This document shows, piece after piece, positions 1-18,331 of a DNA stretch of 64,000 nucleotides. Every line of letters begins with the position of its first letter. The stretch's first letter is position 1. The position numbers and the translations under genes are program-made. The stretch comes from Deferrisoma camini S3R1 (GTDB lineage Bacteria; Desulfobacterota; Deferrisomatia; Deferrisomatales; Deferrisomataceae): positions 2,381,014 to 2,445,013 of the forward strand of contig NZ_JAFN01000001.1 in the NCBI RefSeq assembly GCF_000526155.1, written 5' to 3'. The notes under the pieces are model-generated. The model had not been told where the DNA came from, searched no databases, and worked only from the letters and a program-made list of their open reading frames with translations.

Positions 1-1764
1 GTAGGCGAGGTTCTTGAGCTGCTCCTTGCTCCACCGGTTCCCCGGCTCCAGGGCGTCGAGCCCCACCACGAACACCACCGACCAGTCCATGCCCTTGGCC
101 GTGTGCACGGTGGAGATGGTGACCGAGTCGATGGTGATGTCGTGGCCCGCCTTGCTCCGGTAGTCCTCCGCAGCCCACCGGGCCAGCACGCCCCGGGCCA
201 GGAGCTCCTGCTCCAGCCTCTTGGGAAGGGGCGGCCCCTCCGGGTCGTAGGGGCGCTTCGTGGGGTAGAGCACCGCCACCTCCGAGGCGGGCACCCCCCT
301 TTTCAGGACCCGCTCGGCCACCGCCTCGGCCACGAACGCCACCACCGCCTTCGGGTCTGGGAGCCGAACGAGGGCCGGATCGGGCCCGGGGGCCGTGAGA
401 TACCCCGAAAAGAGCTCCAACTGGGTCGCGCCGGGGCTGGGCTCGGCCGACGTCTCGAGGCCCCGAAACCGCCCGGCAAAGCCAGCGAGCTCCTCGGTGC
501 TCCGGTAGGCCGTGCGCAGGCGGTGAACCCGGCCCCGGGCCCGGATTCCCAGATCCGACCACCGCGCCCGGCCGCCCCGCCGGTACAGGTCCTGATGCTC
601 GTCCAGGGCGATGAGCAGATGATCCGTGTCCGGGTTCAAAAGCCCCACCACCAGGCGGAGCATGGCATCCGAGAAATCCTGGCCCTCGTCCACCAGCACC
701 GCATCGTAGCGCTCCGGAAACTCCGCCAGCCGCCCGAGCGCCTCCTCGACCACCAGATCGTAGTACCCTGGCTCCTCCTTCTCGAACGCGACCGGCTCCC
801 CCACCACCCGCTGACACAGCTCGAACACGTGGCACACCTCGACCCCGCCGCCCGGCCCCAGCCCCAGCCCCTGGCGAACGCACAGCCGCTTCAGGTACGG
901 CACGAGGGCCACGTTGTAGCAGACCAGGAGAACCCGCTGGACCTTGGGGTTGTACTTCCGCAGGAACCGGGCCCGGTGGACGAGGACCAGGGTCTTGCCG
1001 CAGCCGGAAGGCCCCGCCACGATCCGGTGGCCGCCGTCCCACCGCCGGGCCAGGCTCTCCTGGTTGTGGTCGAGGAGCCGAAGCCGCTCCCGGTCCTCCC
1101 CGGGCGCGGGCGGCCGCACGGCCGGAATCCGCACCTCGGGGAAACGGACCTGCCGCACCCGGCCCTGCTCGCGGCCCGTGAGCCGACAGGGGAAGAGCGG
1201 CCGGAACGACGCCTCGAGCCGCTCGCGGAACTTGCGGCCCGACGGGTCGGTGAACAGATCGCCCTGGGGGTGGAGGTCGTCCCAGAAAAACGAAAGGCCC
1301 GACGGGATCACCCGGTCGAGCCCCTTCTCCTCGTACTCGTGGCGGTTGATGTTCGCGAACACCACCCCGGCCGCCACCGGCACCTTCACCTTGTGCGGGT
1401 CGTTGGCCAGGCACAGGGGGCGTTCCCGCCGCAGCCGCTCCAGGATCTGGTTCTTGTACTCCCGGGCCTGGCGCAGGGGGTTCGGCCGGGCCTCCTCCCG
1501 GCCGGTCACCTCGATCACCCAGCCGTGGGGGTTGGCCCTGCGAATCTGATGAAGGGCCCAGTCCTTGACCTCGAACACCACGAGCCCGAGATCGGGGTGA
1601 AAGAGCACGAAGTCCGGCTCCCGGCCGCCCACGTCCGGGGTGTACCAAGCCACGAACTCCCTGTCGGGCCGGGCCACCTGCTGGAGAAACCGGTAGAACC
1701 TCCGCTCCCCTTCGGTGTGGAACGCCTCCACCCCTTCCGGAATTTCCGGAATCATCGTGGCCAT
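1..1764 (-). CDS. NERD-domain superfamily 1 (UvrD/Rep-like) helicase, 3' end outside window
   Basis: Read on the minus strand from ATG at 1764, which has a strong GAGGGAGGGG ribosome site just upstream; the gene runs off the left edge. The first ~120 residues form a NERD nuclease-related domain, with an acidic residue in REPDFVLF and then FEVKDW, the PD-(D/E)XK pattern. Next comes a superfamily 1 helicase core: Walker A GPSGCGKT, a DEGQDF Walker B, and a late TVHTAKGMDW motif typical of UvrD-type helicases. NERD-helicase fusions are usually linked to DNA processing or defence. The start overlaps the preceding small gene by 13 bp, so it is translationally linked to the operon beginning near 13.7 kb. 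I infer a nuclease-helicase effector; substrate unknown. Confidence 0.85.
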   Translation of the reverse strand, partial: MATMIPEIPEGVEAFHTEGERRFYRFLQQVARPDREFVAWYTPDVGGREPDFVLFHPDLGLVVFEVKDWALHQIRRANPHGWVIEVTGREEARPNPLRQAREYKNQILERLRRERPLCLANDPHKVKVPVAAGVVFANINRHEYEEKGLDRVIPSGLSFFWDDLHPQGDLFTDPSGRKFRERLEASFRPLFPCRLTGREQGRVRQVRFPEVRIPAVRPPAPGEDRERLRLLDHNQESLARRWDGGHRIVAGPSGCGKTLVLVHRARFLRKYNPKVQRVLLVCYNVALVPYLKRLCVRQGLGLGPGGGVEVCHVFELCQRVVGEPVAFEKEEPGYYDLVVEEALGRLAEFPERYDAVLVDEGQDFSDAMLRLVVGLLNPDTDHLLIALDEHQDLYRRGGRARWSDLGIRARGRVHRLRTAYRSTEELAGFAGRFRGLETSAEPSPGATQLELFSGYLTAPGPDPALVRLPDPKAVVAFVAEAVAERVLKRGVPASEVAVLYPTKRPYDPEGPPLPKRLEQELLARGVLARWAAEDYRSKAGHDITIDSVTISTVHTAKGMDWSVVFVVGLDALEPGNRWSKEQLKNLAY

Positions 1765-2207: not shown

Positions 2208-5200
2208 CTAGCCCGATACCGCTGCCAAGAGCTTCTCGCACAACTCCGGGGCAAAATAGGTCGAAACTAACGTTCTGCGAAGCGATTCCCTCCCCACTGG
2301 GTCACGCATGCATTCGAAGAGTTCCGGGTCCAGCCGTGCGCCCCGAGCGAACTTAGTGAGTTCCGCAATAGAACGGATTCTTGGTAGATCTTGGAGAGCC
2401 TCTTCCATTCCCTCCACAGGGATCAGATGCCAGAACCCTTCGTTTCGAAGATGGAAGAACGGATACGCCAGGTTTCCTTCTCTCTCATTCGGCATAACCA
2501 GCGACCAGTATTTGCTAAACCGCTCGGCTAGCCGCTGGGACGGCTCAATAAAGTTATCTTTTAAATCTCCTTGCTCGACAAGATCTATTATAGACAAAAG
2601 CAGCAATGGTTTGTGTGGGGCTCGGTGGGAAGTGCCGGGAGGGTAATGAGCCTTTTTCACATCTGTCCTCAACCTCTTGAACCTACCTTCGTATTCTTTC
2701 AGGCAACTGTCGCGCCCCGGTGTCCTCGGCGCGTCGGCGAAACACACCAAAGCGGTACCCGATTCGGCGACAACTGCTGCCCCGTTAGGGTGAATCGGTT
2801 CCGGCGCATCGGGAACGGGAGGCATATCCCCCTCTGGAAGATGATCGGGCCAAGGCAGCAAATCGACGGTCGATGGCCGCGTCTTGCCTTCAGCGAAATA
2901 CAGGGCCCTGAACCGGGGCATTTGCTTTATCTTGTCAATCAGAGTCCTTTCCTGATCGGAACTCGCCACATTGCGCACGAGTGCCTTTGCGTCTGCTTCT
3001 GTCAATCTCAGCACGAGGTAGTTGGCCACAGCAGAAAAAAGGGAAGCGTGAAAATCTTTTGCCTCCTGCGATGCCAAAACAAGGGATATTCCATACTTGC
3101 GACACTCCTTCGCCATGGTTGGTATCAACTTCAACCTGGCGGCCCTGTGCGCTTCATCAAAAACGATCGCGTGCGTGATGCGATCTTTCACCCCCCTCTT
3201 GAACATGTCTTTGTACAGCCCGTAGAAAACCAAAGACGCGAACGCTTTTTGCAGATTCTCATTTTGCGTCGAGTGAATGCGAATCACTACCGGCGCGCTA
3301 CTCTCCCAAAGGCTTTGTTGATGTTCAGCTAGATCAAAAAAGCCATAGTCGTCGAGTTCCTCCAGACGGGCCAAAAGAGTCTTCAACCCCCTATCCTGCC
3401 TGGGTTCCGCGCGAAGGATCTCGACAAACCGACGAAATGGTGGCTCAACAAGATCCTCTCCGCGGTCCGTCTGCTGGTCCCATCCGGCCTCCAAAAAGCT
3501 CTCCTTCACCGCTCTCCGTATCCGTTCCCCCTGGATGTCACCCAACTCGGGATAGATGGCAAGGAAAATGTCCCGCACGGCCCCGGCCACATCGAGATAC
3601 CCCATGGGGGAATCGCGGTCGACCACCTGAAGGGGGTTGAACCCGAGGCCCGAGAAATCGACGAAGCGTACCCCTCCCACAGCGGCTTGTAGTCTCTCGT
3701 CTATGTCTTGGTGATAGGAAAACACGATCGGCCGGATCCCGGCGTCCAGCATCTGTTTGCAGATGTTGAGCAGACAAGTCGTCTTCCCCATTCCCGGCAA
3801 ACCGGCCAGTAGCAAATGGGGATTCCCTTTCACCGTAACCGGCCAACGCACCTCCGCGCCCGACCACGCGTCCGCTCCCAGACAAATTGCAGGAGCGACG
3901 TTTTGGCCCGGCCCCCTACGTTCCGGTGCGGGCACCGCCCCTTCCCGCCTGTCAGGGGGAGCCGCAGGAGCGACGGGAACCTCTGCATCCGGCGGTATTC
4001 GGTTCCCGGCGGGGATGCCGTCGACCCCAACCCCGGACACCCCAACTTTCGGGATATGCGAGATGGACAACCCGCCCACCCGGCCGTCAGTGACCGGATC
4101 ATCCGCCCTTCCCCTCGCGGTTGCTTCAGAAAAAGCGGAATCCGGCAACACCGAGGGCCCGAACAGAAAGATTCTTGTCTCCCAACCGGCCGGCGTGATC
4201 TCCAGGGGGTGCCCCCCCTGATACTCCGGGCAAAAGACCCATCCGAGGCCCGGCATCCGTTGATCCGAAAAGGAATAATCGCCCCCCCTCTCTACCATCT
4301 TGTCAATCTCGCTCACCGCCAATCGGTACGTATCCTTAGGAAGGTAGTGCCTTCGAGCCTTGTCCGCATAGAACCGAAGCACGCGCGCAAGCTTCGCGCG
4401 GCGAAGCGCCCGAAATGCCGCTGGCACGTCTTGCGCACCATACCAGTTCATCCACCGCGACCGAAGGCCCTCCACCTGCCCCCGTATCGTCTGCAAGAGC
4501 TCGGGATTTCGCGCCGCCCGCAGGTGCCGGCGATACTTCACCTCGACGAACTGGAACACCAACCCCTTCCGGGGCAGCACAGAGACATAGATCAGATCCG
4601 GTCGCGTCAACCGGTCAACCTCTGTCCCGCCCTGCCCTTGGAGGGGCGGTAGCAGGTCAGCCACGTCATCCACGGGGATCAAGAACCCCCTTTCCAGGGA
4701 CACCCAGCACGGACTATCGCCTGCGGACCGTCGGCAGTTTGCGTGGCTCATAGCCAGCGCCACCAGTTCCACGGTGGGCGCCTTTTGCCCCGTCAATCGG
4801 ATCGCTAGGCGCCCGCTCAAAGCCTTAAGGTTCTCCATCAGGAACTCGGCATTTCGCCTACTCCTGCTGAGGCCCATCTGGTCTAGGGCGCCGTCTAACA
4901 GGTTTCTCACTTCATCAAGGTTCGAAGTAGAAGTTATCAGCTGCAGGCAACCCAGGTCTTCCCGTTCTGGAACACAATCGATGACGTATGCGTCGTAGAT
5001 GTCTTTGTGATCCCGAGGAGAGTCGAAGTACTCTATGCCAGCATTTCGATCGAGCGTAATCACCCAGTCACAGAGCTTATGAATTTGTTGAAGCTGCTCC
5101 GCCTTTTCCGGGCTGATCTGGGTGCGCAAGACGGGATCGCCGTCCGACTTCCCGAGATTGCGGGCCACGCAGCGCAAAACCCCTTGGAGGAGTCTTGTCA

Positions 5201-7922
5201 AGCGCTCGGAATGCACCCGCTCCGACGGGTGTTTCTCCCCTTCCACCTCCGCCGGTACGGCCCCCTCCCACTGCGGGGTCGGTTTGCCCGTGTACGTTCG
5301 ATCGAAGAACGAAAGTAGGCCGAAAGCGAATAGCGGTCGACGCCTGCGTTCAGCTCCGGCCACTACCTTCGACTGGAACGTATCGAACGCCACCCCGATG
5401 TGCGCCGCCCTATCCGGAACCGAGACATCCCGGCGCGCCCACCGCAGCTTCGGCATCAGCCCCCCTCCAGGCAGGCTCACCGAATCGAAGACCCATCGGT
5501 CCGAATCTTCAATCCTGCCTGCCCCGGAGCGCCTGCGCTCGCGCAACTCCAAAAGAAAGCGGCCGGCAACTCCCCGTTGCGCTTGGGACGGATACAGTTC
5601 CAAGACAAATGCAACGGACCTCCGCTCCATTCCCTCCGTGGGTTCGGCCTCCGTCTCCTGCAACTCCCCACCGGCCCCCTGCACGCGGCCCAAAGCCCGG
5701 ACCACGGTCAACCCGTCGCCCGGGCGCAGCGCGTGCACATGCATCACGCGGGGTGGTTCATGGCATTCCAGATACTTCTGGATCTCGACACCCAAGATGT
5801 GGGCACTTTGCTGCCCCACGGTCGGCGTCGTGTCATTCGCGTCGCTCTCCCCCAATGCCCGGTTCAGAACGGCCAGCGCCGCCTTCGGTTCCTCGTCGTC
5901 GTCGGCAACCATGCCGACCGCATGGAAGCCGAGGTTATCCGCGAAAACGAATGACCTACCCGCTGCCGGCCCCGGGAGGAACGGAGGGAACATCGCGCCA
6001 TCCAAGAGCTTGAACTCGTCCCGGATCGACTTCGGGGACGCACCCTCCACGTATCGCGTGAACAGAACAAGAGCGTCGTAGCCCACGTGCCAGGCCACCC
6101 GGAGAGGATGGGCCGGCAGAACAACGACTCCGAGCGTGCGGCCCGAAAGGGACTGCACCTCTACGGTTTGGGTAAGCGCAAACGCGGGAGGGGTTTCCTC
6201 GTGGTTCAGGAGCGCGGCCCAGGCATTAAGATACTCCACGACCTGCCCGAATCCCTGGCTCGCGTCATCGTAAATCTGCCCCACCGCACCTTGGGTCACG
6301 GCAACCCGGTCGGCGAACCGTCGACTTGCAGCAACTACACGTTCCCACACAGCGAGCCATTCCTGGGAAGCTCCTCCCCCATCGGGCTCCAAGGGGACGA
6401 ACTCCGGAGAGCCCACCCGGACGCCCGATTCGCGCACTCGAACTAGCCATCTCCCGGGGTGTCCTTGCCGGGAAAACCAATCCTCTTCCGCTTCCCGGAT
6501 AAGAGGGGGTCGATAGACGCGAAAACGCTTCCCCCCCTTGCCGGTCTGCAGGAGCACATACCCCTTTCTATCCTGGGAGTAAGCGTCTGCTCGCGCGGCC
6601 AAAGTGGTCACGTCGTCCCTGTCTGCGAGCTCGACGGCCCCTTCGCTGAGGGTTCGCACCCTCTTGCCGGAGGCCGTCTTGGACTCGGCGGAAACCTCCC
6701 CCCACCGAATGACGAACTCTTCCGTTTCCTGGGGTTCCACGTCGTCGTTCCCCACTACCGCAACGCGCACGCGGGCGTTCACCACCGCGTCGTCGCCCAG
6801 TGCCGCAAAATCATCGTTCGAAAACCGGCACTTCTCCTCCCTCCTGGCGGCGTGTCTCACGGTCCGAGAGGCGATTTCCTCATCCAGATCGCTCACAACC
6901 TGCACCGTGTACTCGGCGGCCCCTTTGGGCAAATCCACGGGCCTGGCCCGCCAGCGCACTTCCAAGGTCGAATAGTTCCCGCTGCGTTCCGCTTCCGGGT
7001 CCAAGACAAAGGCGGGCGGATCGCCGTCCCCCTGCTCCCGCAAGCCGGACCACTTGGACAGCTTTCCCGAGCGATTGCGCCAGGGCACCAACTCGGTCTC
7101 CCGCACCCCCTCCGCCGATATCTCGAGACGAAGCGCGTTGACCCACAGGTGCGGGAGGTCGGCCAGCTCTCCCACCGCGGCCAGCAGAGGCTTCGTGGCG
7201 GCCGACGTCACAAACCGTTCCAGGTCTGCGAGCTGTTTTGGGGTCGGATCAAGAAGCCGTAGCGACTGGATCCGCTGCACCGGCGAACGGCCGGCCGTCT
7301 CTCTCCCGATCAGTTCGTCCACAAACTTCCGAGAGATGGCGAGATCCGCATCCGGATCCGCGGGCTCGTCCACCTGGACGGGCCAGAGGCCGAGCAAGTG
7401 CAAGAGCGCCCCGGGGTGAACGCCTTCGGCAACGGCCCGGGCGAAAAAATCGAACTCGGCCCAGCGCGACACACTGAACCGCCCCCGTGACCGCGCCTTT
7501 TGGATGGCGCGCTCCGCATACCTACGAGCGGCGCTGGACTGGCTCCTGGTGAGCTGTGCCGCAACCTGCCGCACAGCCTCCCGGAAAAGGCCGGCTTCCT
7601 CCACCTCCTTCGCGGCGCTGTAGATGCCATCCATCCCCGCTCCGGCTCGCGAGGTATCCACAAGGAGGAGAGTGGTTTCCCGTTTCGTTTCCCGCAACTC
7701 TACCGCCCGATCCGCCTCCACCGTGCGGTCGTCCGGATCGTTTTCGTCCGCCACCCGGTACACCGACCAACCCGCCGGCTGGAACCGGCGATCCCGAGCC
7801 AACTGCTCCACGACGTGGGGCGTCAGAAAGCGCGCGAACGCGATCGTGCCTTCCTGCGGCCGACCCAGCACGGTCTCGAAAGCACGGCTCAGGACCCGCG
7901 CGTGGGTTTCAGTCCAGATCAT
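2208..7922 (-). CDS. HerA/FtsK-type ATPase with PD-(D/E)XK-like module and C-terminal SBD-like domain (DptH / MAD8-like)
   Basis: 1904 residues. The first ~1100 residues resemble no small enzyme I know, but a long N-terminal region is usual in DptH/MAD8-type proteins. Around residue 1120 a nuclease-like core is visible (RPDLIYVSV then FVEVKYRRHL, the D...ExK pattern). A P-loop ATPase follows: GLPGMGKTT near residue 1380 and HAIVFDEAHRAARLK near 1590, with a late SLVLASQEAKDF motif as in HerA/FtsK translocases. The last ~130 residues carry HRAPHKPLLLLSII ... AYPFFHLRNEGFWHL, the signature of the HNH-associated/ScoMcrA sulfur-binding domain family. The start overlaps the upstream gene by 14 bp. 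GC is visibly lower in the 3' third than in the flanking genome, suggesting transfer. DNA translocation or cleavage in defence is inferred, not shown. Confidence 0.75.
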   Translation of the reverse strand: MIWTETHARVLSRAFETVLGRPQEGTIAFARFLTPHVVEQLARDRRFQPAGWSVYRVADENDPDDRTVEADRAVELRETKRETTLLLVDTSRAGAGMDGIYSAAKEVEEAGLFREAVRQVAAQLTRSQSSAARRYAERAIQKARSRGRFSVSRWAEFDFFARAVAEGVHPGALLHLLGLWPVQVDEPADPDADLAISRKFVDELIGRETAGRSPVQRIQSLRLLDPTPKQLADLERFVTSAATKPLLAAVGELADLPHLWVNALRLEISAEGVRETELVPWRNRSGKLSKWSGLREQGDGDPPAFVLDPEAERSGNYSTLEVRWRARPVDLPKGAAEYTVQVVSDLDEEIASRTVRHAARREEKCRFSNDDFAALGDDAVVNARVRVAVVGNDDVEPQETEEFVIRWGEVSAESKTASGKRVRTLSEGAVELADRDDVTTLAARADAYSQDRKGYVLLQTGKGGKRFRVYRPPLIREAEEDWFSRQGHPGRWLVRVRESGVRVGSPEFVPLEPDGGGASQEWLAVWERVVAASRRFADRVAVTQGAVGQIYDDASQGFGQVVEYLNAWAALLNHEETPPAFALTQTVEVQSLSGRTLGVVVLPAHPLRVAWHVGYDALVLFTRYVEGASPKSIRDEFKLLDGAMFPPFLPGPAAGRSFVFADNLGFHAVGMVADDDEEPKAALAVLNRALGESDANDTTPTVGQQSAHILGVEIQKYLECHEPPRVMHVHALRPGDGLTVVRALGRVQGAGGELQETEAEPTEGMERRSVAFVLELYPSQAQRGVAGRFLLELRERRRSGAGRIEDSDRWVFDSVSLPGGGLMPKLRWARRDVSVPDRAAHIGVAFDTFQSKVVAGAERRRRPLFAFGLLSFFDRTYTGKPTPQWEGAVPAEVEGEKHPSERVHSERLTRLLQGVLRCVARNLGKSDGDPVLRTQISPEKAEQLQQIHKLCDWVITLDRNAGIEYFDSPRDHKDIYDAYVIDCVPEREDLGCLQLITSTSNLDEVRNLLDGALDQMGLSRSRRNAEFLMENLKALSGRLAIRLTGQKAPTVELVALAMSHANCRRSAGDSPCWVSLERGFLIPVDDVADLLPPLQGQGGTEVDRLTRPDLIYVSVLPRKGLVFQFVEVKYRRHLRAARNPELLQTIRGQVEGLRSRWMNWYGAQDVPAAFRALRRAKLARVLRFYADKARRHYLPKDTYRLAVSEIDKMVERGGDYSFSDQRMPGLGWVFCPEYQGGHPLEITPAGWETRIFLFGPSVLPDSAFSEATARGRADDPVTDGRVGGLSISHIPKVGVSGVGVDGIPAGNRIPPDAEVPVAPAAPPDRREGAVPAPERRGPGQNVAPAICLGADAWSGAEVRWPVTVKGNPHLLLAGLPGMGKTTCLLNICKQMLDAGIRPIVFSYHQDIDERLQAAVGGVRFVDFSGLGFNPLQVVDRDSPMGYLDVAGAVRDIFLAIYPELGDIQGERIRRAVKESFLEAGWDQQTDRGEDLVEPPFRRFVEILRAEPRQDRGLKTLLARLEELDDYGFFDLAEHQQSLWESSAPVVIRIHSTQNENLQKAFASLVFYGLYKDMFKRGVKDRITHAIVFDEAHRAARLKLIPTMAKECRKYGISLVLASQEAKDFHASLFSAVANYLVLRLTEADAKALVRNVASSDQERTLIDKIKQMPRFRALYFAEGKTRPSTVDLLPWPDHLPEGDMPPVPDAPEPIHPNGAAVVAESGTALVCFADAPRTPGRDSCLKEYEGRFKRLRTDVKKAHYPPGTSHRAPHKPLLLLSIIDLVEQGDLKDNFIEPSQRLAERFSKYWSLVMPNEREGNLAYPFFHLRNEGFWHLIPVEGMEEALQDLPRIRSIAELTKFARGARLDPELFECMRDPVGRESLRRTLVSTYFAPELCEKLLAAVSG

Positions 7923-9727: not shown

Positions 9728-12700
9728 CTACCCCTCCTGCCCGGCCGGACGGATCACCAGGTGTTGTCTCACACCCCCTTCGGTTTCCCTCAGGGTGACG
9801 CCCACTTCGTAAACGCGCTCGTCCTGGCTCGGGTTCCAAGCCAAGAGTCTCCGCTCGTCTTCCCGGACCAACCGCTGCACGAAGATGGAGAGGTGGGCAA
9901 AGGTGTCGTCCGAGGACACGTCGCCCAGTTGGTACCCTTCCGCGAGTTGAAGCAGCAGGTGAAAGAGCTCCGCCCCCATCCGCAGACGCTCTTCACGGCC
10001 GTCCCGGTAGCGATAGACGAGAAACGCTCTCCGGTGAAGCCGTTCCATTCCCTCCATTTCGGGTGGAAGGTCCGCTTCCACCCGAAAGTGGCCGAGGGGC
10101 TTTTCCACCCAAAAGGCCGATTCGGTGGGCGTGCGGGGGGTTATCCGGAGGGGTACCACTCCCTTTCGGTCCAGCGCCCGGGGCGGAAGCTGCTCGAGCT
10201 TCGCTATGCCTTGGCACAGCCGCTCGCACACCCGCATCCGATCTTCGGCGTCGCTGAGGGGAAGGTCCCGAAAGAGCCCGATGTGAGTCCCCCGCGCCAA
10301 CCCCAGCGCGTACGGGTCTCCGGACACGAACTGAATGTGGTCGGCACTCCATTCGAAAAAGGCTCGGCGCCTCGCAGATTCCACCGTCAGATCGGGATAC
10401 CGGGGAGGACCGTCCCCTTGTTCCGCTGGGTTCGACACGAGATACCGGTCGATCCGGGGGTGTGCCTCGAGGCCTGGGTCGAGTCGTGCCAACTCCCCCA
10501 GCACCTCCCCCTGGCGTGCCGGCGAGGTGGGGGAGAAGGCCCGGTCCCAATACGGCAGGGTTTCCTCCGCCGGCCGCCGGTGGTAGTCCTCACAAGAATG
10601 GAGGCCGAAGAGGACGTACACCAAGGCCGCCCTCAACTCGCGCACGGTGATGTGCGTCTCCCCCCTCAGATGCACCGCCTGGAGCGCCTCGAAGAGCCGC
10701 TCGCGCGCCCGGCCTCGAACCGGCTCTGGTTGTCGGTTCGGAACCCCTTCCGGCCCGAACACGCGCGCCGCCCGGAACACCTCGCAACGGCGCTTCGCCG
10801 AACAGGTTCGGCACGGCGCCCATATCTCCGTGGCGTCTCGGCCGCCATACAGGTGATCCACCAACCTCTCAAGAAACGCGGTTGCGATCGCCTTCTTGTC
10901 CGGGAGCACACCGCCGACCAGAGACCTCTGATTGAGATCCACGAACCGAATGTGAGACTCCTGAGTTGCCACCTCCTGTTGCAGCAGAGAGTAAAGCTCC
11001 TCGGTTAGCGGCGTGGTTCCAGATCGCTCCTCGTAACTTTCGATCCACTCCATCAAACGGCCGTCGTTGATGGCCAGGAGATGGACGATGTCCTCTTGGG
11101 GTGGGCCCTGCTGAAACGGTTCCAAGAACGCGTCCAAGAGTTGGTCGGCCGTCTTCCCCTCCCAGGCGGCCGACCCGTCGAAATTGATGCGCACGGTGGG
11201 CCCGCCGGGGATCTCCCCTTCAACGACTCTTTGCGCGGAGGAGTGGTGGCCGAGCCCCAACTCCATTGCCAGATGCTGTAGGAGAGCCGTCTTCCCGTCC
11301 CCCGCGTTCCCGCAGAGGATGACGAGCCGCACACGCCGATCTCGCACGTCGCGGAGTAGCGTCTCCTCCAGCGGGGTGGCGACATACGTACTCTTTGCGA
11401 ACTCCGTGTCGAGCCCGCGGGTTTCCTGGTTCCCCCACCGGGAACCAGGGTAGGACTGGAGAAGCCCTTTCAGCCATTCCACCTGTTCTTCAGACAGTGC
11501 CTCGTCCCCCTCGGAAGCAACCCCGGGAGGTGTGACTGCCTTTCCGTCCATCGGTGTGCGCCCGGCTACCCGGGCTTCCGAAAGCCACTTCAGCGCCTCC
11601 GCTGCGTTCTCGAACCGGTCGCCGGGCTCTGGGTGAGTAGCCTTGTTGAGCCACCGCGAGAGCACGGGGTACGCACCTTGGTCGATCTCCCCCCAGTTCA
11701 AACCCCGGCCCTTGTCGAGAGTCCCCCCGTAACGAAAAGGTTCGCGATCGAACACCACATGGAAAAGGCTGGCCGCCAGCGCATAAAGATCGTCCGACGC
11801 TACCGCACCCTGGCTGGCCGGAGTGGGGGGTGGGCAGTAAAGAACGGTTCCCGGCGACGCCCTCGGTTCTCCGATCCGCGTGGCGAAATCATAGTCCGTG
11901 AGCACGAGATCTTGACCCGAAACGATCAAGTTCTTTGGACTCACGTCGCCTTGAACGATCCCGTTTTTGTGCAGTACATTGAGGGCCTGGCAGACCTGGC
12001 CCAGCCAGCGTAGGGCCAACGCCTCCGCATTTGGCTCCCCTTGCTCTTCCGCCAACAACGGAAACACGCCGATGAACGACGAAAGCGCAGCCCCGTCGAC
12101 CCACTTCATCAGGGCGACAAAACTGTTTTCCTGCCACTCGCTCGCCACTTCAAAAATGGTAGAGAGCCCCGTATGCCCTAGGTGGGAACGAACCAGGTGG
12201 TACGCGCGGAGGATCCGTTGGCCCACGTGCTCCTCGTGGGCCACCTTTGCCACGTATGTTCCGAATTCTTCTCCGGTCTTACTGTCTACGTGGACAACCT
12301 TGTACGTAGTGCCAACGCCTCCAGATCCCAATCGGGCTACGATCCTGTATTCGTGGCCGCGAAACGGGATGACTTGATCTTCTGTCCAGTATCTTGCGGG
12401 TGGAGGCGGAACGACGCGGTGCACGTCACCCAGGAGTTGCGAGAGTCCGGCCTCGAGCTCCTGTAAGCTCGCCCGGTCGGCTGGTTCCTCGGCCAACCCC
12501 TGCTTCAGTACGGAAAGCGCCCGTCTCGATGTCTCATCTTCGAGCGTTTTGAAGATCTCCCCCAGCGAAGCGCAGAGTGCGTACACGTCGGACCGCTGAT
12601 CCGCACACGCGTAGCCCTGACTGAGGATTTCTGGGGGCACATAAGGCACCAGTGCATTGGACGGAAGCGTTGTCGATGCGACCGTCTTTTGGGACGGAAC

Positions 12701-13732
12701 CTTCGTCCGTTCGAATCCAGTGAAGATTGGCGTGTTGTCGTACTTCACCAATATGGTGTTGGGGGTCAGGTTCCTGTGGACCAAGGGCTCGTCGCTATCC
12801 GCTGCGTGCAGATCGCTCAGGGCCTGGACCGCCCTTCTCGCAAAATCCACCCGGCTCTCAGGGCTCCATGTCTCGTCCGCTGATCGTTCCTCCAACGTTG
12901 GAGCCGCCGGGTCCACGACTGAAAAGAAAAACATCTCACCGGCGTACCCGGGCGCCTCTTGGTATGAGTCCAGAATGCGCGGTGCCCACGGATATAGCTG
13001 TAGTCGCCGCAACGCCTCGAACTCTCTTTCGGCCCTCGCATCCGCGTTCCTCTCCGTACTCGCGGACAGGTCGTAGAGATGCAACACGACGCGGTCCTGC
13101 CGGGCCGCGTGAACTGCCTTGTAAACGCGGTGGAACCTCTCCTCCTTTGGCGTTTGAAGCTCCAGGTTCACATACCCAGCGAGGCGTTTTAGGGAACCAT
13201 CTATAGCGACGGAGCACTTAGGTTCTAGCGCGCGGCCCAGTCTGCGCACTTCATCCGAAGTCAAAACCTCCATGCCCCCTGCGCCGGCCGCCTTCTCGCA
13301 ATCCCGAAGACCGTGGAAAGGGACCCCCCGAACCGTTTCACCCAAGACCCGGGAAATCTTCGCCGAACCCTCGGTCAGAAGGAATGCGCCGTCCACCCTA
13401 GGCAGCGATTTCACGACCCTTCGGAGCGTAGTTCCCACTTTCTTGGCTTTGAGAGTCACCCGGTCGGCTTCTCGCTCGACAACATCCCGATTCTTGTTGA
13501 TCCAGGCGGCGGTCCAGTGTTTTACCTCTACCACCTTCACCCCCGGAGGCCCGATGGCAACGATGTCGATTTCTTCAGACTGCAATTGGTGAGTTACAGA
13601 AAACGATAAATTGCACAGCAGAATCCACTCTCCATCGCCGGACAGAGATATGAGCTTCGTCTTCAGTTGTTCGACGGCCATCCGCTCGCTTTCGTTTGCC
13701 ATAGGCCCGCAATGGAAAACCGTCACCTTCAT
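9728..13732 (-). CDS. NERD nuclease - pseudokinase - Ser/Thr kinase - DptF-like P-loop ATPase fusion (MAD6-like)
   Basis: 1334 residues from ATG at 13732, chosen because GGGAG lies 7 nt upstream and the protein then begins at the NERD domain; the open frame continues further upstream without meaning. Domains: NERD nuclease (~12-130; D56, E69 and K71 of EIDIVAI/VEVKHW); a kinase fold at ~190-440 with degenerate motifs (HRNLTPNTIL instead of HRD, GFE instead of DFG), so a pseudokinase; a second kinase at ~465-760 with GSGGVGTTYK, YVAKVA, QGDVSPKNLIV and TDYDFA, which looks active; an ATPase from ~800 with CGNAGDGKT; and a C-x2-C-x5-C cluster near 978 (CRTCSAKRRC). The ATPase resembles DptF. First gene of the leftward defence operon. 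Kinase-based phage sensing or self-regulation is inferred. Confidence 0.75.
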   Translation of the reverse strand: MKVTVFHCGPMANESERMAVEQLKTKLISLSGDGEWILLCNLSFSVTHQLQSEEIDIVAIGPPGVKVVEVKHWTAAWINKNRDVVEREADRVTLKAKKVGTTLRRVVKSLPRVDGAFLLTEGSAKISRVLGETVRGVPFHGLRDCEKAAGAGGMEVLTSDEVRRLGRALEPKCSVAIDGSLKRLAGYVNLELQTPKEERFHRVYKAVHAARQDRVVLHLYDLSASTERNADARAEREFEALRRLQLYPWAPRILDSYQEAPGYAGEMFFFSVVDPAAPTLEERSADETWSPESRVDFARRAVQALSDLHAADSDEPLVHRNLTPNTILVKYDNTPIFTGFERTKVPSQKTVASTTLPSNALVPYVPPEILSQGYACADQRSDVYALCASLGEIFKTLEDETSRRALSVLKQGLAEEPADRASLQELEAGLSQLLGDVHRVVPPPPARYWTEDQVIPFRGHEYRIVARLGSGGVGTTYKVVHVDSKTGEEFGTYVAKVAHEEHVGQRILRAYHLVRSHLGHTGLSTIFEVASEWQENSFVALMKWVDGAALSSFIGVFPLLAEEQGEPNAEALALRWLGQVCQALNVLHKNGIVQGDVSPKNLIVSGQDLVLTDYDFATRIGEPRASPGTVLYCPPPTPASQGAVASDDLYALAASLFHVVFDREPFRYGGTLDKGRGLNWGEIDQGAYPVLSRWLNKATHPEPGDRFENAAEALKWLSEARVAGRTPMDGKAVTPPGVASEGDEALSEEQVEWLKGLLQSYPGSRWGNQETRGLDTEFAKSTYVATPLEETLLRDVRDRRVRLVILCGNAGDGKTALLQHLAMELGLGHHSSAQRVVEGEIPGGPTVRINFDGSAAWEGKTADQLLDAFLEPFQQGPPQEDIVHLLAINDGRLMEWIESYEERSGTTPLTEELYSLLQQEVATQESHIRFVDLNQRSLVGGVLPDKKAIATAFLERLVDHLYGGRDATEIWAPCRTCSAKRRCEVFRAARVFGPEGVPNRQPEPVRGRARERLFEALQAVHLRGETHITVRELRAALVYVLFGLHSCEDYHRRPAEETLPYWDRAFSPTSPARQGEVLGELARLDPGLEAHPRIDRYLVSNPAEQGDGPPRYPDLTVESARRRAFFEWSADHIQFVSGDPYALGLARGTHIGLFRDLPLSDAEDRMRVCERLCQGIAKLEQLPPRALDRKGVVPLRITPRTPTESAFWVEKPLGHFRVEADLPPEMEGMERLHRRAFLVYRYRDGREERLRMGAELFHLLLQLAEGYQLGDVSSDDTFAHLSIFVQRLVREDERRLLAWNPSQDERVYEVGVTLRETEGGVRQHLVIRPAGQEG

Positions 13733-14040: not shown

Positions 14041-15042
14041 TCACTCCCCTTTGAACACGTCCTTCAGGGACTCTGCCTCGAACGCGCGCTCCACCCACCC
14101 CGCCAGGGTGTCCAGGTCCGCCCCCGTCACACGGTCCCGCAGATCTGCCGGAACCTCGCCAAAGCGCTTCTCCAGGATCCGAAGCAGAAGCTCTGCCCTG
14201 CCTTCCTGGAGCCCCTGCTGAAGCCCCTGCTGGAGCCCCTGCTGGAGCCCCTCCTTCCTTCCCGCTTCGATCCCCTCCCGCTTCCATTGCTCCGTCCACT
14301 CCTTCACCCGTTCCGCCAACATGTCTCGCACCTCCAGTAGATCTCGGGTCTCCGGCATCGGTGTGTCGGGCAGACGCGCCGGCAAAAGCACCCGCCTCAC
14401 CCATACCGCAAACGCCCGCCGCAACTCCCGCTGCTCATCGGCTCCCATCCACTCCAACAGGGCCTCCACCACCGCCCGCACGTCCTCCGGTGTCCGGCTC
14501 TGCTCCAACCGGAACAGCGCCGCCACCAGGTTCCGCTCGATCGACAAGGCCTCCGGGCCGTACCGCCCCTCGTCGATCAGAAGGTACCGCATCCGGGGCC
14601 GGTACCGGCCCAGTCCCTCCGGAACCGCCTCCACCAGATCCTCCACCGCTTCGGCCGCGCTCCACCGGCGCTCCCCATTGTACAGCACCACCGGCAGCAC
14701 CGGTGGCAGTTTCCCCTCCGGCCCCAGCTCGCCCCGCCGGATCAGGTCCTGGTACAGGAGCCCCACGTAGGTGAGGATCCGCACCGCCATGAACGGGTCC
14801 ACGGTGGACTGGAACTCCAGCAGGATGTACACATAGACCCAGCGGGGTCCCCACCGGACTTTCCAGACCACGTCGTCCTCGCGGCTCCGCAGATCGTCGG
14901 ACACGTAGGAGCCGCTCACCCTCTCCAGGGTGGAAAAGTCCAGTTCCCGGACCCAGGGCTCGGGCACGAACCCGATGAGGAGGTCCTGGATCATGCGGGG
15001 GTGGGAGAAGAGGTTCTTGTATCCGGTGTCGTGCTCTGCCAC
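14041..15042 (-). CDS. Rpn family recombination-promoting nuclease / putative transposase
   Basis: 333 residues from GTG at 15042, with CGGAGGGG about 5 nt upstream; an in-frame ATG 12 codons earlier (15078) lacks a comparable site. The N-terminus (DTGYKNLFSHPRMIQDLL) is the Rpn/PDDEXK_1-family start, and DDVVWKVRW ... YILLEFQST gives the PD-(D/E)XK nuclease core with the E-x-Q variant. The C-terminal part has WTEQWKREGIEAGRKEG and then a QQGL repeat linker, typical of Rpn proteins. Known Rpn enzymes are DNA endonucleases that stimulate RecA-independent recombination, and some act in phage defence. Single-gene unit ending at the hairpin at 13.8 kb. Its upstream region is duplicated near 16.8 kb. 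Confidence 0.85.
   Translation of the reverse strand: MAEHDTGYKNLFSHPRMIQDLLIGFVPEPWVRELDFSTLERVSGSYVSDDLRSREDDVVWKVRWGPRWVYVYILLEFQSTVDPFMAVRILTYVGLLYQDLIRRGELGPEGKLPPVLPVVLYNGERRWSAAEAVEDLVEAVPEGLGRYRPRMRYLLIDEGRYGPEALSIERNLVAALFRLEQSRTPEDVRAVVEALLEWMGADEQRELRRAFAVWVRRVLLPARLPDTPMPETRDLLEVRDMLAERVKEWTEQWKREGIEAGRKEGLQQGLQQGLQQGLQEGRAELLLRILEKRFGEVPADLRDRVTGADLDTLAGWVERAFEAESLKDVFKGE
14206..14255 (-). repeat. 12-bp tandem repeat coding QQGL units in Rpn gene
   Basis: About four copies of a 12-bp unit (cccctgctggag on the plus strand, one variant) encode consecutive QQGL segments near residue 270. Because the unit is a multiple of three, changes in copy number alter linker length without frameshift. 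Confidence 0.7.
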
Positions 15043-15107
15043 CGTGCCCCTCCGGGTTTCGGTTGGCGACCCGTCCATTCTGTCGCCCACTGCTGCGGGC
15101 GTCAATG
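15032..15107. repeat. Dispersed repeat, copy A (Rpn upstream region)
   Basis: Contains the start, ribosome site and leader of the Rpn gene. About 80% identical by eye to 16780-16852, sharing tttcggttggc, tgtcgccc and ctgcgggcgtcaatg in the same order. Confidence 0.65.
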
Positions 15108-15201
15108 CGGTACGCCTGCCATGCCGGGACGATAGCTGCAAGCTGCAGGACCCCGCAGGGGCCTGACGAGACTTCCGAGACGAGCCCTCAAGAGGACCCC
15201 C

Positions 15202-16245
15202 ATGCGACGAATCGATCTTCGTAGCGACACCGTGACCCGCCCCACGGCCGCCATGCGCCGCGCCATGTTCGAGGCGGAGGTGGGGGACGACGTGTACGGG
15301 GAGGATCCCACGGTGAACCGCCTCCAGGAGGTGGCGGCGGCGCTTCTGGGCAAGGAGGCGGCGCTGCTGCTGCCCAGCGGCACCCAGGCCAACCAGGTGG
15401 CCGTGCTGAGCCACGCCGGCCGGGGGGAGGAGGTGATCGTCGAGGCCGAGAGCCACATCTTCTACTACGAGGTCGCGGGCATCGCCGCCCTGGCCGCGTG
15501 CCAGGCCCACCCCGTTCCGGGCCACAGGGGGATGATGGACCTGGACCGGGTGGAGGCCGCGATCCGGGCCGACAATATTCATTTTCCGCGAACCGCCCTG
15601 ATCTGCGTGGAGAACACCCACAACCGGGCGGGCGGCACCGTGCTGCCCCTGGAGCACCTGGAAGAGCTGTCAGGGCTCGCCCGGCGCCACGGGGTTCCGG
15701 TGCACATGGACGGGGCCCGGGTGTTCAACGCCGCGGTGGCCCTGGGCCGGCCGGTGGCCGAGATCGCGGCCACGGCGGACTCGGTGATGTTCTGCCTGAG
15801 CAAGGGGCTGGCCGCGCCGGTGGGCTCGGTGCTGGCGGGCCCGAAAGCGTTCATCGAGCGGGCGCGCCGGCACCGAAAGCTGCTGGGCGGCGGCATGCGC
15901 CAGGCCGGTATCTTGGCCGCCGCCGGCCTGGTCGCCCTGGACACCATGGTGGGCCGCCTGACCGACGACCACGCCAACGCCCGGGCCCTGGCCCGGGGGA
16001 TCGCGTCGGTGGACGGCCTGCGCGTGGACCTGGGCGCGGTGCAGACCAACATCGTGCTGTTCGAGGTGGTGGACCCGGCCTGGGACGCCGCCTCCCTGGT
16101 GGCTGCCCTGGGGCGGGTGGGCGTGCTGTGCAGCGCGTTCGGCCCCCGAAAGATCCGGCTGGTGACCCACTGCGACGTATCGACCGAGGACGTCTCAGAG
16201 GCTCTCGACCGGATCGAGACGGTGGTGAGGCGCGGCCGCCGGTGA
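15202..16245 (+). CDS. ltaE: Low-specificity L-threonine aldolase
   Basis: 347 residues, the usual length for the beta-eliminating aldolase family. It is a cytosolic PLP fold-type I enzyme splitting L-threonine or L-allo-threonine into glycine and acetaldehyde. The N-terminus [15 protein letters not shown] is diagnostic. [40 protein letters not shown] and [12 protein letters not shown] follow in canonical order. The PLP lysine is K201 in [13 protein letters not shown], and GGGMRQAG is also conserved. ATG at 15202 is directly before the conserved start. The gene stands alone on the plus strand, divergent from the Rpn gene, and looks like an ordinary core gene inside an accessory strip. Confidence 0.95.
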
Positions 16246-17104: not shown

Positions 17105-18331
17105 ATGACGTATCTGCCGAGACACCTCGCAAGAACCCTGCACCGCGCCGCTGCGACGTTTCCGGCGGTACTCGTGACCGGTTCGCGCCAGACCGGGAAA
17201 ACGACCCTGCTCAAGAACGAGTTCGGGGCGACCCACCGGTACGTGTCGCTGGAACGTCCGGATGTTCGGCTGCGTGCCACGGAAGACCCGGTGGGGTTCC
17301 TGCGAGAGATCCCCCCGCCGGTCATCCTCGACGAGATCCAATACGCCCCGCACCTGCTCCATTACATCAAAGACGAGATCGATCGCGCTCGCGAGCCGGG
17401 GCGGTGGCTCCTCACAGGGTCCCAAACGTTTGGATTGATGAAGGGGGTGAGCCAGACCCTGGCGGGACGCGTGGCCGTGCTCGAACTCCTGCCGCTCTCC
17501 GTCGCAGAGGCACGCGGGAACCCACCGCCTCCCACGGTAGACGACCTTCTGGCCAAAGTCTTTTCCGGACCTTCCCCCGTCGCCTCCGACACGTCCGTCG
17601 ACCTCGGAGACTGGCTGATCCGCGGGGGCTACCCCGGGGTCCGATTGAATCCTCAGATCGATCCAAACCTCTGGTTCGGTGGCTACACCCAAACCTATCT
17701 GGAACGGGACGTGCGGGATCTGTCCCATGTGGGTGATCTGCACGCGTTCACCCGGTTTCTGACGCTCGTGGCGGCCCGAACGGGCACCGTGTTGAACATG
17801 GCGGCGTTGGGTGCCGAAGCCGGCGTCACCGGCCCTACCGCCCGACGATGGCTCTCCGTGCTCGAAGCAAGCGGTGTGGTGTGCCTGCTTCCGCCGTTCC
17901 ATCGTTCTTTCGGAAGACGCATCCGCAAGAGCCCCAAGCTGTATATGATCGACCCGGGGCTCGCCTGCTACCTCATGGGGATCCAGACGCCTGAGCAGGC
18001 GCTGCAGAGCGTTTTTGCCGGCCCGCTGGTGGAAACGGCTGTGGTTTCCGAGTGGATCAAGGCGTTTCGTCACCTGGGAGAGCGGCCGACGCTCTACTAC
18101 TGGCGGTCGGGAAACGGGCTGGAGGTCGACCTGATCATCGAGCGGGGGACCCGCCTGTATGCGGTGGAGGTGAAGGCAACGGCCACACCCGTGCCGAAGC
18201 ATGCCGCCGCCCTGTCCCGGTGGCTCGGGATCGCCGGCGAGTCGGCCCAAGGGGTGGTGGCCTGCGACGTGGAGCGGCCGGGCACGCTAAGGCCGGGCAT
18301 CCGGGCCGTTCCGTGGCACCTGGCATGGTGA
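17105..18331 (+). CDS. AAA-family ATP-binding protein with DUF4143 domain
   Basis: 408 residues. Walker A is GSRQTGKTT (26-34), Walker B PVILDEIQYAP and sensor LLTGSQTFGLMK, the AAA_14 arrangement. The C-terminal DUF4143 part ends with YYWRSGNGLEVDLIIERG and YAVEVKAT, which resembles a PD-(D/E)XK nuclease fold. These proteins are common in accessory regions; their role is uncertain, with links to DNA repair, mobile elements or toxin-like systems. The gene starts ~60 bp after the antitoxin remnants, divergently, and is followed by 410 bp without a gene. It appears complete. Confidence 0.85.
   Translation: MTYLPRHLARTLHRAAATFPAVLVTGSRQTGKTTLLKNEFGATHRYVSLERPDVRLRATEDPVGFLREIPPPVILDEIQYAPHLLHYIKDEIDRAREPGRWLLTGSQTFGLMKGVSQTLAGRVAVLELLPLSVAEARGNPPPPTVDDLLAKVFSGPSPVASDTSVDLGDWLIRGGYPGVRLNPQIDPNLWFGGYTQTYLERDVRDLSHVGDLHAFTRFLTLVAARTGTVLNMAALGAEAGVTGPTARRWLSVLEASGVVCLLPPFHRSFGRRIRKSPKLYMIDPGLACYLMGIQTPEQALQSVFAGPLVETAVVSEWIKAFRHLGERPTLYYWRSGNGLEVDLIIERGTRLYAVEVKATATPVPKHAAALSRWLGIAGESAQGVVACDVERPGTLRPGIRAVPWHLAW

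What the first reader, a model, noticed from the sequence alone, without database searches (positions are those of the whole stretch)
2208..2700. SBD-like DNA-modification reader fused to a HerA ATPase
Seen: the last ~130 residues carry HRAPHKPLLLLSII and AYPFFHLRNEGFWHL. Known: this pattern is shared by the N-terminal domain of HNH restriction enzymes and the ScoMcrA sulfur-binding domain that reads phosphorothioate DNA. Inferred: the translocase may be guided to, or excluded from, modified DNA by its own tail, giving a single-chain reader-motor-nuclease.
Basis: partly seen in the sequence, partly recalled or inferred. Interest (0 to 1): 0.72.

Follow-up and report, generated by a model that had tools for sequence, protein, structure and literature searches.

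The report
Sulfur-DNA reader fused to restriction motor
A bacterial DNA-cutting and DNA-pumping defence protein of the DndH family carries at its tail a domain that elsewhere recognises sulfur-marked (phosphorothioate) DNA, a combination seen in none of 80 related systems, which suggests that this bacterium points a usually mark-sparing defence complex at sulfur-marked foreign DNA.

Summary
Residues 1738-1904 of the 1904-aa protein (window 2208-2711, - strand) are a genuine sulfur-binding domain (SBD): NCBIfam PT-DNA restriction enzyme E 3e-9, PDB SBD-Hga E 1e-14, and an AlphaFold2 model (pLDDT 90) superposing on SBD-Hga (Z 20, 1.9 A), SprMcrA and ScoMcrA. Pocket residues are present (H1770, K1771, Y1820, P1821). 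The host protein is a DndH (nuclease motif plus HerA motor; best fold match PDB 7es4, DndH-C), third gene of a DndFGH-type operon whose DndF carries NERD and two kinases. Of 80 related loci from many phyla none has an SBD; complete DndH copies generally stop where HerA ends. In the sister species the same chromosomal spot holds a stand-alone SBD-HNH enzyme instead of the 12-kb operon. The genome has no recognisable phosphorothioate writer. A second, apparently independent fusion (SBD on SspF, in an operon that also encodes the SspABCD writer) was found in another genome. Best reading: the tail delivers or activates the FGH complex at phosphorothioate DNA, a type-IV-like use. PT binding and the sign of the effect (activate or exclude) are inferred. 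'Single-chain' overstates it: DndH is one subunit.

The parts
2211..2711 (-). SBD tail of DndH, residues 1738-1904 (stop codon 2208-2210)
   Evidence: NF045808 E 2.8e-9; PDB 8h0l E 1.4e-14; AF2 model pLDDT 89.6; Z 20.2 to 8h0l, 14.2 to 5zmo
2610..2615 (-). Pocket residues H1770 and K1771 (ScoMcrA H116, R117; Lys in most homologues)
   Evidence: alignments A2-A4, positions; roles from PMC6224610
2460..2465 (-). Pocket residues Y1820 and P1821 (ScoMcrA Y164, P165)
   Evidence: profile alignment to ScoMcrA 5zmm RYPFWAL; positions; PMC6224610
2451..2453 (-). H1824 at the position of ScoMcrA A168 (tolerant position)
2712..2852 (-). Pro-rich linker, residues 1691-1737, low model confidence; no start codon with a recognisable ribosome site seen at the SBD
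   Evidence: DNA read; relatives end at residue ~1690; low pLDDT
2853..3890 (-). HerA/FtsK-type ATPase domain, residues 1345-1690 (Walker A GLPGMGKT 1374, DEAH 1589)
   Evidence: PADLOC DndH E 1.8e-20, mad8 E 7e-18; best fold match 7es4 DndH-C-domain
4518..4670 (-). PD-(D/E)xK-type nuclease motif, D1109, E1127, K1129 (RPDLIY...FVEVKYR)
   Evidence: sequence and alignment of 16 DndH proteins; domain order from PMC10853773
2208..7922 (-). dndH-SBD gene, 1904 aa
7909..9726 (-). dndG / sspG / mad7-like gene, 605 aa
   Evidence: NF047733 MAD7 E 4.6e-47 (below curated cut-off); SspG E 1e-5; conserved next to dndH in relatives
9728..13732 (-). dndF-like gene: NERD, two kinase domains (first lacks the HRD Asp: VHRNLTP; second VQGDVSPKN), DptF/SspF P-loop core. 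Likely start 13732 or 13702; the frame is open to 14404
   Evidence: NERD E 1e-8, Pkinase E 1e-24; SspF E 5e-18, mad6 E 6e-22; relatives ~1340 aa
1752..2189 (-). 145-aa ORF of unknown family between dndH and NERD-UvrD; the in-frame ATG just inside it follows a GGAGG-like site and is the likelier start
   Evidence: no significant family match; not seen near relatives; DNA
1..1764 (-). NERD + UvrD helicase gene, 617 aa in all (ends about 90 bases left of the window)
   Evidence: PADLOC C3a187 E 2e-74; 96% identical in the sister species next to SBD-HNH; full length

Best explanation
The locus encodes a DndFGH-type restriction complex whose DndH has gained a C-terminal phosphorothioate (PT) reader. 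Proposed mechanism: DndF and DndG assemble with DndH, whose HerA domain translocates along DNA and whose REase domain cuts. The SBD, on a flexible linker beyond the motor, docks on Rp-PT linkages and so loads or activates the complex on PT-bearing incoming DNA (from elements or neighbours with dnd or ssp genes). Because the host has no recognisable PT writer, such DNA is foreign and the complex works like a type IV, mark-dependent restriction system. Shown by computation: SBD fold and pocket residues, DndH/HerA identity, operon, absence of a DndC- or SspD-type writer, restriction of the fusion to this locus among 80 relatives, and the SBD-HNH occupant of the same site in the sister species. 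Inferred: PT binding, complex formation, catalysis, and that PT switches the complex on rather than off.
For: SBD fold and pocket. DndH identity of the carrier. No PT writer: PF01507 finds only genes read here as CysH and two CysD, TIGR03183 DndC none at E<=1; the PF01507 search does find SspD where it exists (G1268). Sister species G200: flanks 95-97% identical in DNA, but the site holds an SBD-HNH gene directly upstream of the same NERD-UvrD gene, and G200 has only three PAPS-reductase-family hits, as the host does. SBD-HNH enzymes are described as cutting PT DNA, and their genes were expected not to co-occur with dnd clusters of the same specificity (PMC7461809).
Against: The characterised DndFGH is switched off by PT (PT represses its ATPase; PMC11662687), the opposite sign. 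The SBD-SspF example sits with a PT writer, where a self-sparing role is more natural. The DndH fusion is seen in one genome only, so conservation of the tail under selection cannot be shown. 14 of 16 sampled genomes with this operon have no DndC match over the cut-off and no shared modification gene was seen nearby, so what the FGH core itself senses is unknown. The SBD has 52% GC against 64% for the N-terminal two thirds of dndH, so the tail may be a recent, untested acquisition.
Confidence: 0.55

Rival explanations
1. PT brake: the SBD makes the complex stall on or ignore PT-marked DNA, giving DndFGH-style self-protection or a licence for PT-marked DNA.
For: PT represses the ATPase of the characterised DndFGH (PMC11662687) and SspFGH damages DNA without PT (PMC8092258); the SBD-SspF fusion sits beside SspABCD.
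Against: The host genome has no recognisable DndC, SspD or BrxP-type writer (with positive control), so a brake would not act on self DNA.
Confidence: 0.2
2. The SBD is used as a plain or other-modification DNA-binding domain (a winged-helix DNA clamp) that changes sequence preference or processivity of the motor, not as a sulfur reader.
For: The fold is a winged-helix relative (ORC/Cdc6 matches at Z ~8; the wHTH reading in PMC10853773); base-contacting loops of SBDs vary (PMC6224610).
Against: The four main pocket residues are kept (H, K, Y, P), and the H and P equivalents are the most conserved ones among SBD homologues.
Confidence: 0.17
3. Accidental fusion: loss of a stop codon joined DndH to a neighbouring SBD gene fragment, and the tail is a neutral passenger.
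For: Single genome; the HNH half is missing; the sister species has an intact SBD-HNH at the same site.
Against: The tail is a complete, confidently folded domain with an intact pocket and a Pro-rich linker; it is only 52% identical to the sister's SBD although the flanks are 95-97% identical in DNA, and its GC (0.52) matches the 3' half of the HerA domain (0.52), not the local SBD-HNH (0.69), so it probably arrived as part of dndH.
Confidence: 0.08

Closest known systems
DndFGH (DptFGH) restriction complex, DndH subunit
   Same: Three-gene F-G-H order; DndH with a REase motif and C-terminal HerA/FtsK ATPase (best fold match PDB 7es4); DndF with NERD and tandem kinases is a described variant (PMC10853773).
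   Different: In described DndH the HerA domain is the C-terminal-most domain; here an SBD follows it. No PT-writing module recognised in the genome.
MADS core MAD6-MAD7-MAD8
   Same: MAD7 profile covers nearly all of DndG (E 4.6e-47), MAD6 much of DndF (E 5e-50), mad8 the HerA domain (E 7e-18).
   Different: The NCBIfam matches are below the curated cut-offs; mad8 is ~314 aa against 1904 aa here; no DNA methylase recognised in the operon.
SBD-HNH type IV enzymes (ScoMcrA with an extra SRA domain, SprMcrA, EcoWI) and the solved SBD-Hga
   Same: Same reader domain and pocket residues; probably the same kind of target.
SspABCD-SspFGH
   Same: F-G-H module with motor subunit; a variant found here (L154) also carries an SBD, on SspF.
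   Different: SspFGH works with a PT writer and damages DNA without PT (PMC8092258); the window genome has no such writer and the SBD is on H.

Membership tests
Sulfur-binding domain (SBD) | SBD fold | tested here: met
   AF2 model Z 20.2 to 8h0l, 15.0 to SprMcrA, 14.2 to ScoMcrA
Sulfur-binding domain (SBD) | Sulfur pocket residues H116, R/K117, Y164, P165 | tested here: met
   H1770, K1771, Y1820, P1821
Sulfur-binding domain (SBD) | Binds Rp-phosphorothioate DNA in preference to plain DNA | not testable with these tools
   needs purified protein
DndH | HerA/FtsK ATPase domain with Walker motifs | tested here: met
   most Walker A and DEAH positions invariant in 16 DndH proteins
DndH | REase catalytic residues | tested here: met
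   D1109, E1127, K1129 present; activity not tested
DndH | HerA is the C-terminal-most domain | tested here: not met
   SBD follows HerA; complete copies among 80 relatives generally end at residue ~1690. By its core (29-63% identity over most of its length to DndH relatives) it is a DndH with an added domain; this departure is what is reported.
DndH | Full eight-domain core (inactive SF2 lobe, HTH, beta-sandwiches, TRDs, inactive MTase) | not tested
   N-terminal part not modelled; weak similarity to other DndH proteins over residues 379-1241
DndFGH complex | F, G and H encoded together | tested here: met
   same order in most relatives whose loci are long enough
DndFGH complex | Physical F:G:H complex with nicking and translocation | not testable with these tools
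   needs biochemistry
PT-dependent restriction-modification (DndABCDE or SspABCD with FGH) | PT writer in the same genome | tested here: not met
   PF01507: only CysH/CysD-like genes; TIGR03183 DndC: none; positive control SspD found in G1268
MADS | Match MAD6/MAD7 models above curated cut-offs | tested here: not met
   161 of 410 bits for MAD7, 170 of 460 for MAD6
SBD-HNH type IV enzyme | HNH nuclease domain | tested here: not met
   protein ends at the SBD-HNH boundary

The most novel reading that the evidence does not exclude
DndFGH-type complexes can be re-targeted by bolting on a portable PT reader: on DndH in a PT-free host (a motor-driven type IV system aimed at PT DNA) and, independently, on SspF in a PT-writing host (a built-in self-sensor). 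The same reader would then set opposite outcomes of one restriction machine.
Probability: 0.35. Interest if true: 0.8.

Novelty: new variant of a known kind. Interest (0 to 1): 0.62.

Why it matters
I found no account of which part of DndFGH or SspFGH senses phosphorothioate DNA; PT is reported to repress DndFGH, yet the domain lists read here for DndF, DndG and DndH name no sulfur-binding domain. The locus swap with an SBD-HNH enzyme in the sister species also gives a natural comparison of two different effectors behind related readers.

Tried and rejected
(1) That the motif match was chance or low complexity: rejected by profile, PDB and fold evidence. (2) That the SBD is a separate gene: the DNA shows no stop and no start with a recognisable ribosome site at the domain border. 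(3) That relatives have the SBD as a separate neighbouring gene: an SBD-HNH profile against all ORFs of the 80 DndH loci (up to 7 kb of flank) gave one hit only, confined to the HNH part. (4) A conserved modification partner next to the operon: neighbours scanned with Pfam share nothing of note; one N6_N4_Mtase in 16 upstream genes and no methylase among the first 25 of 49 families listed downstream. (5) SBD fusions on phages or viral contigs: phage collection none; the viral-contig SBD proteins are small (up to 346 aa), most with HNH by profile. (6) viral contigs for DndH: only short Walker-region matches. (7) G044, 69% identical DndH core: a truncated remnant that ends at residue ~1684 and lacks most of the N-terminal half, so silent about the tail. 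(8) AF2 of HerA plus tail together: HerA well modelled, linker low confidence, SBD poor because no SBD sequences were in that alignment; the SBD was modelled separately. (9) A paper joining 'sulfur-binding domain' with DptH: none in the held library, which lacks most subscription journals. (11) Two alignment or scan calls failed on wrong reading frames and were repeated or dropped.

Full report
OBSERVATION. The ORF at window 2208-7922 (-) encodes 1904 residues. Residues 1764-1902 match NCBIfam NF045808, 'phosphorothioated DNA-binding restriction endonuclease', at E 2.8e-9, and the tail matches the PDB chain 8h0l (SBDHga1, crystallised with phosphorothioated DNA) at E 1.4e-14. Pfam shows nothing there. 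Predicted alone, with 13 SBD sequences from viral contigs as alignment, the tail folds at mean pLDDT 89.6, pTM 0.87. Foldseek and VIA-align give SBD structures as the top hits: 8h0l Z 20.2, 1.9 A, 146 residues; SprMcrA 7cc9 Z 15.0; ScoMcrA 5zmo Z 14.2; the next, ORC/Cdc6 winged helices, are at Z 8.6 and below.

POCKET. In ScoMcrA the sulfur cavity is made by H116, R117 (Lys in most homologues; R117K did not appreciably change binding), Y164, P165 and A168, the last being tolerant (PMC6224610). The profile of the window SBD and its relatives aligns to ScoMcrA at RYPFWAL. The window protein has H1770, K1771, Y1820, P1821 and H1824 at these positions. Across 12 SBDs, the Pro before H1770 is invariant and H1770, K1771 and P1821 nearly so.

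THE CARRIER. Residues 1345-1690 are a HerA/FtsK ATPase (PADLOC DndH E 1.8e-20, mad8 E 7e-18). The model of this region has PDB 7es4, the DndH C-domain, as its best Foldseek match. A PD-(D/E)xK-type motif (D1109, E1127, K1129) lies upstream. The operon upstream holds a 605-aa DndG/MAD7-like protein and a DndF-like protein with NERD, two kinase domains (the first without the HRD Asp) and a DptF/SspF P-loop core. DndF fused to NERD and tandem kinases is described, as is a DndH core in which HerA is the last domain (PMC10853773). So this is a DndFGH-type system. The MADS models (MAD6, MAD7, mad8) also match, but the NCBIfam ones stay well below their cut-offs.

IS THE TAIL SHARED? A scan of GTDB species genomes with an alignment of three DndH cores returned 80 related loci (30-63% identity in the best segment) from Binatia, Planctomycetes, Acidobacteria, Latescibacteria, Caldilineaceae, Proteobacteria, Verrucomicrobia, Bacillota and others. 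Most loci long enough to show it carry the F-G-H order. DndH copies with an intact C-terminus mostly stop 0-23 residues after the end of HerA; exceptions are L067 (66 extra residues, another short tail) and a few broken or unaligned copies such as L055 and L094. An SBD-HNH profile against all ORFs of these loci found no SBD. The scan is pattern-limited, so absence elsewhere is not proven. In sampled genomes of the window's phylum and of three other phyla (about 1,590 genomes; names not told) SBD hits were mostly in frames of about 160-380 aa, apart from the window, a fragment at a contig edge, and three long proteins discussed below.

SISTER SPECIES. The genus has three genomes in the set. In G200 the same chromosomal place, flanks 95-97% identical in DNA, has a 330-aa SBD-HNH gene between the threonine-aldolase-like side and the NERD-UvrD gene, which is 96% identical in protein over the part held; the window has about 12 kb with the FGH operon there. 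The SBD of the window is 52% identical to that of G200. Its GC is 0.52 against 0.69, similar to the 3' half of the HerA domain (0.52). I infer that a ready-made dndH-SBD operon, rather than a local fusion, took the place of an SBD-HNH gene (or the reverse); which came first is not shown. G176 has a matching SBD fragment at a contig edge.

NO WRITER. PF01507 (the family of DndC, SspD and BrxP sulfur-transfer subunits; partly from general knowledge) finds three genes in the host, read here as CysH and two CysD from sequence and neighbours. DndC TIGR03183 gives no match at E<=1. As a control, PF01507 finds SspD in G1268. Of 16 other genomes with this operon, two have DndC over the cut-off. A writer of an unknown kind is not excluded.

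A SECOND FUSION. In G1268 (contig C287, L154) the SBD is at the N-terminus of a 782-aa SspF (SspF E 5e-30; NF045808 E 3e-6 at residues 29-100), followed by SspG and a SspH/DndH, in a run that also encodes SspB, SspC, SspD and an SspA/DndA-type cysteine desulfurase. In the SBD tree this domain falls in another part of the tree from the window's (split 96/93), though its branch is long and its place therefore unsure. PMC10853773 lists a wHTH among N-terminal additions of DndF and equates SBD with a wHTH, so some such fusions may have been seen without being named PT readers. Other long SBD proteins: G920, SBD with an EVE domain and an McrB-like region (by eye) next to a DUF2357/PD-DExK (McrC-like) gene; G899, SBD in a 1612-aa protein with sigma-r4 and alpha-CTD-like parts. 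The SBD is thus a portable reader; a 2020 paper says SBD proteins almost exclusively contain HNH motifs (PMC7470945).

MECHANISM. Known: DndFGH nicks while translocating and PT represses its ATPase (PMC11662687); SspFGH damages DNA without PT (PMC8092258); SBD-HNH enzymes cut PT DNA (PMC7461809). With no recognisable writer, PT can mark only foreign DNA in this host, so a reader that activates or recruits is more sensible than a brake; the SBD-HNH enzyme at the same site in the sister species, also without a recognised writer, points the same way. This step is inference. I put 0.55 on the type-IV-like reading, 0.2 on a brake, 0.17 on plain or other DNA binding, 0.08 on a neutral passenger.

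VERDICT. Observation confirmed; interpretation partly supported; a new variant of a known kind. Weak points: a single genome with the DndH fusion, no binding data, and an unknown primary trigger of this FGH clade.

Noticed in passing
L154:7014-9359 (-) (G1268 contig C287): SspF with an N-terminal SBD in an operon with SspA-, SspB-, SspC-, SspD-, SspG- and SspH/DndH-like genes: a PT writer and an FGH module with a built-in PT reader.
   Followed up: partly
L153:5110-9797 (-) (G920 contig C36): SBD fused to an EVE domain and an McrB-like region, followed by a DUF2357/PD-DExK (McrC-like) gene.
   Followed up: partly
L152:4922-9757 (-) (G899): 1612-aa protein with an N-terminal SBD and sigma-70 region 4 and RNA polymerase alpha-CTD-like segments; function unclear.
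   Followed up: no
L057, L107, L046 upstream of dndH: Tandem dndG paralogues (four, three and two copies) before one dndH, perhaps alternative DNA-recognition subunits.
   Followed up: no
L067:7001-12121 (+): DndH with a different C-terminal extension of about 66 residues that looks HTH-like by eye.
   Followed up: no
window 1-1764 (-) and about 90 bases to its left: NERD-UvrD helicase gene kept next to either the FGH-SBD operon or the SBD-HNH gene in two species, so it may be a partner or a separate island gene.
   Followed up: partly
window 14041-15657 (-): Long frame containing an Rpn-like (recombination-promoting nuclease / transposase-like) protein by eye, upstream of the operon; overlaps the open 5' extension of the dndF frame.
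   Followed up: no
window 17105-18331 (+): AAA-type protein matching PADLOC candidate PDC-S01 (E 1e-108); a similar-looking gene lies just left of the window (by eye).
   Followed up: no
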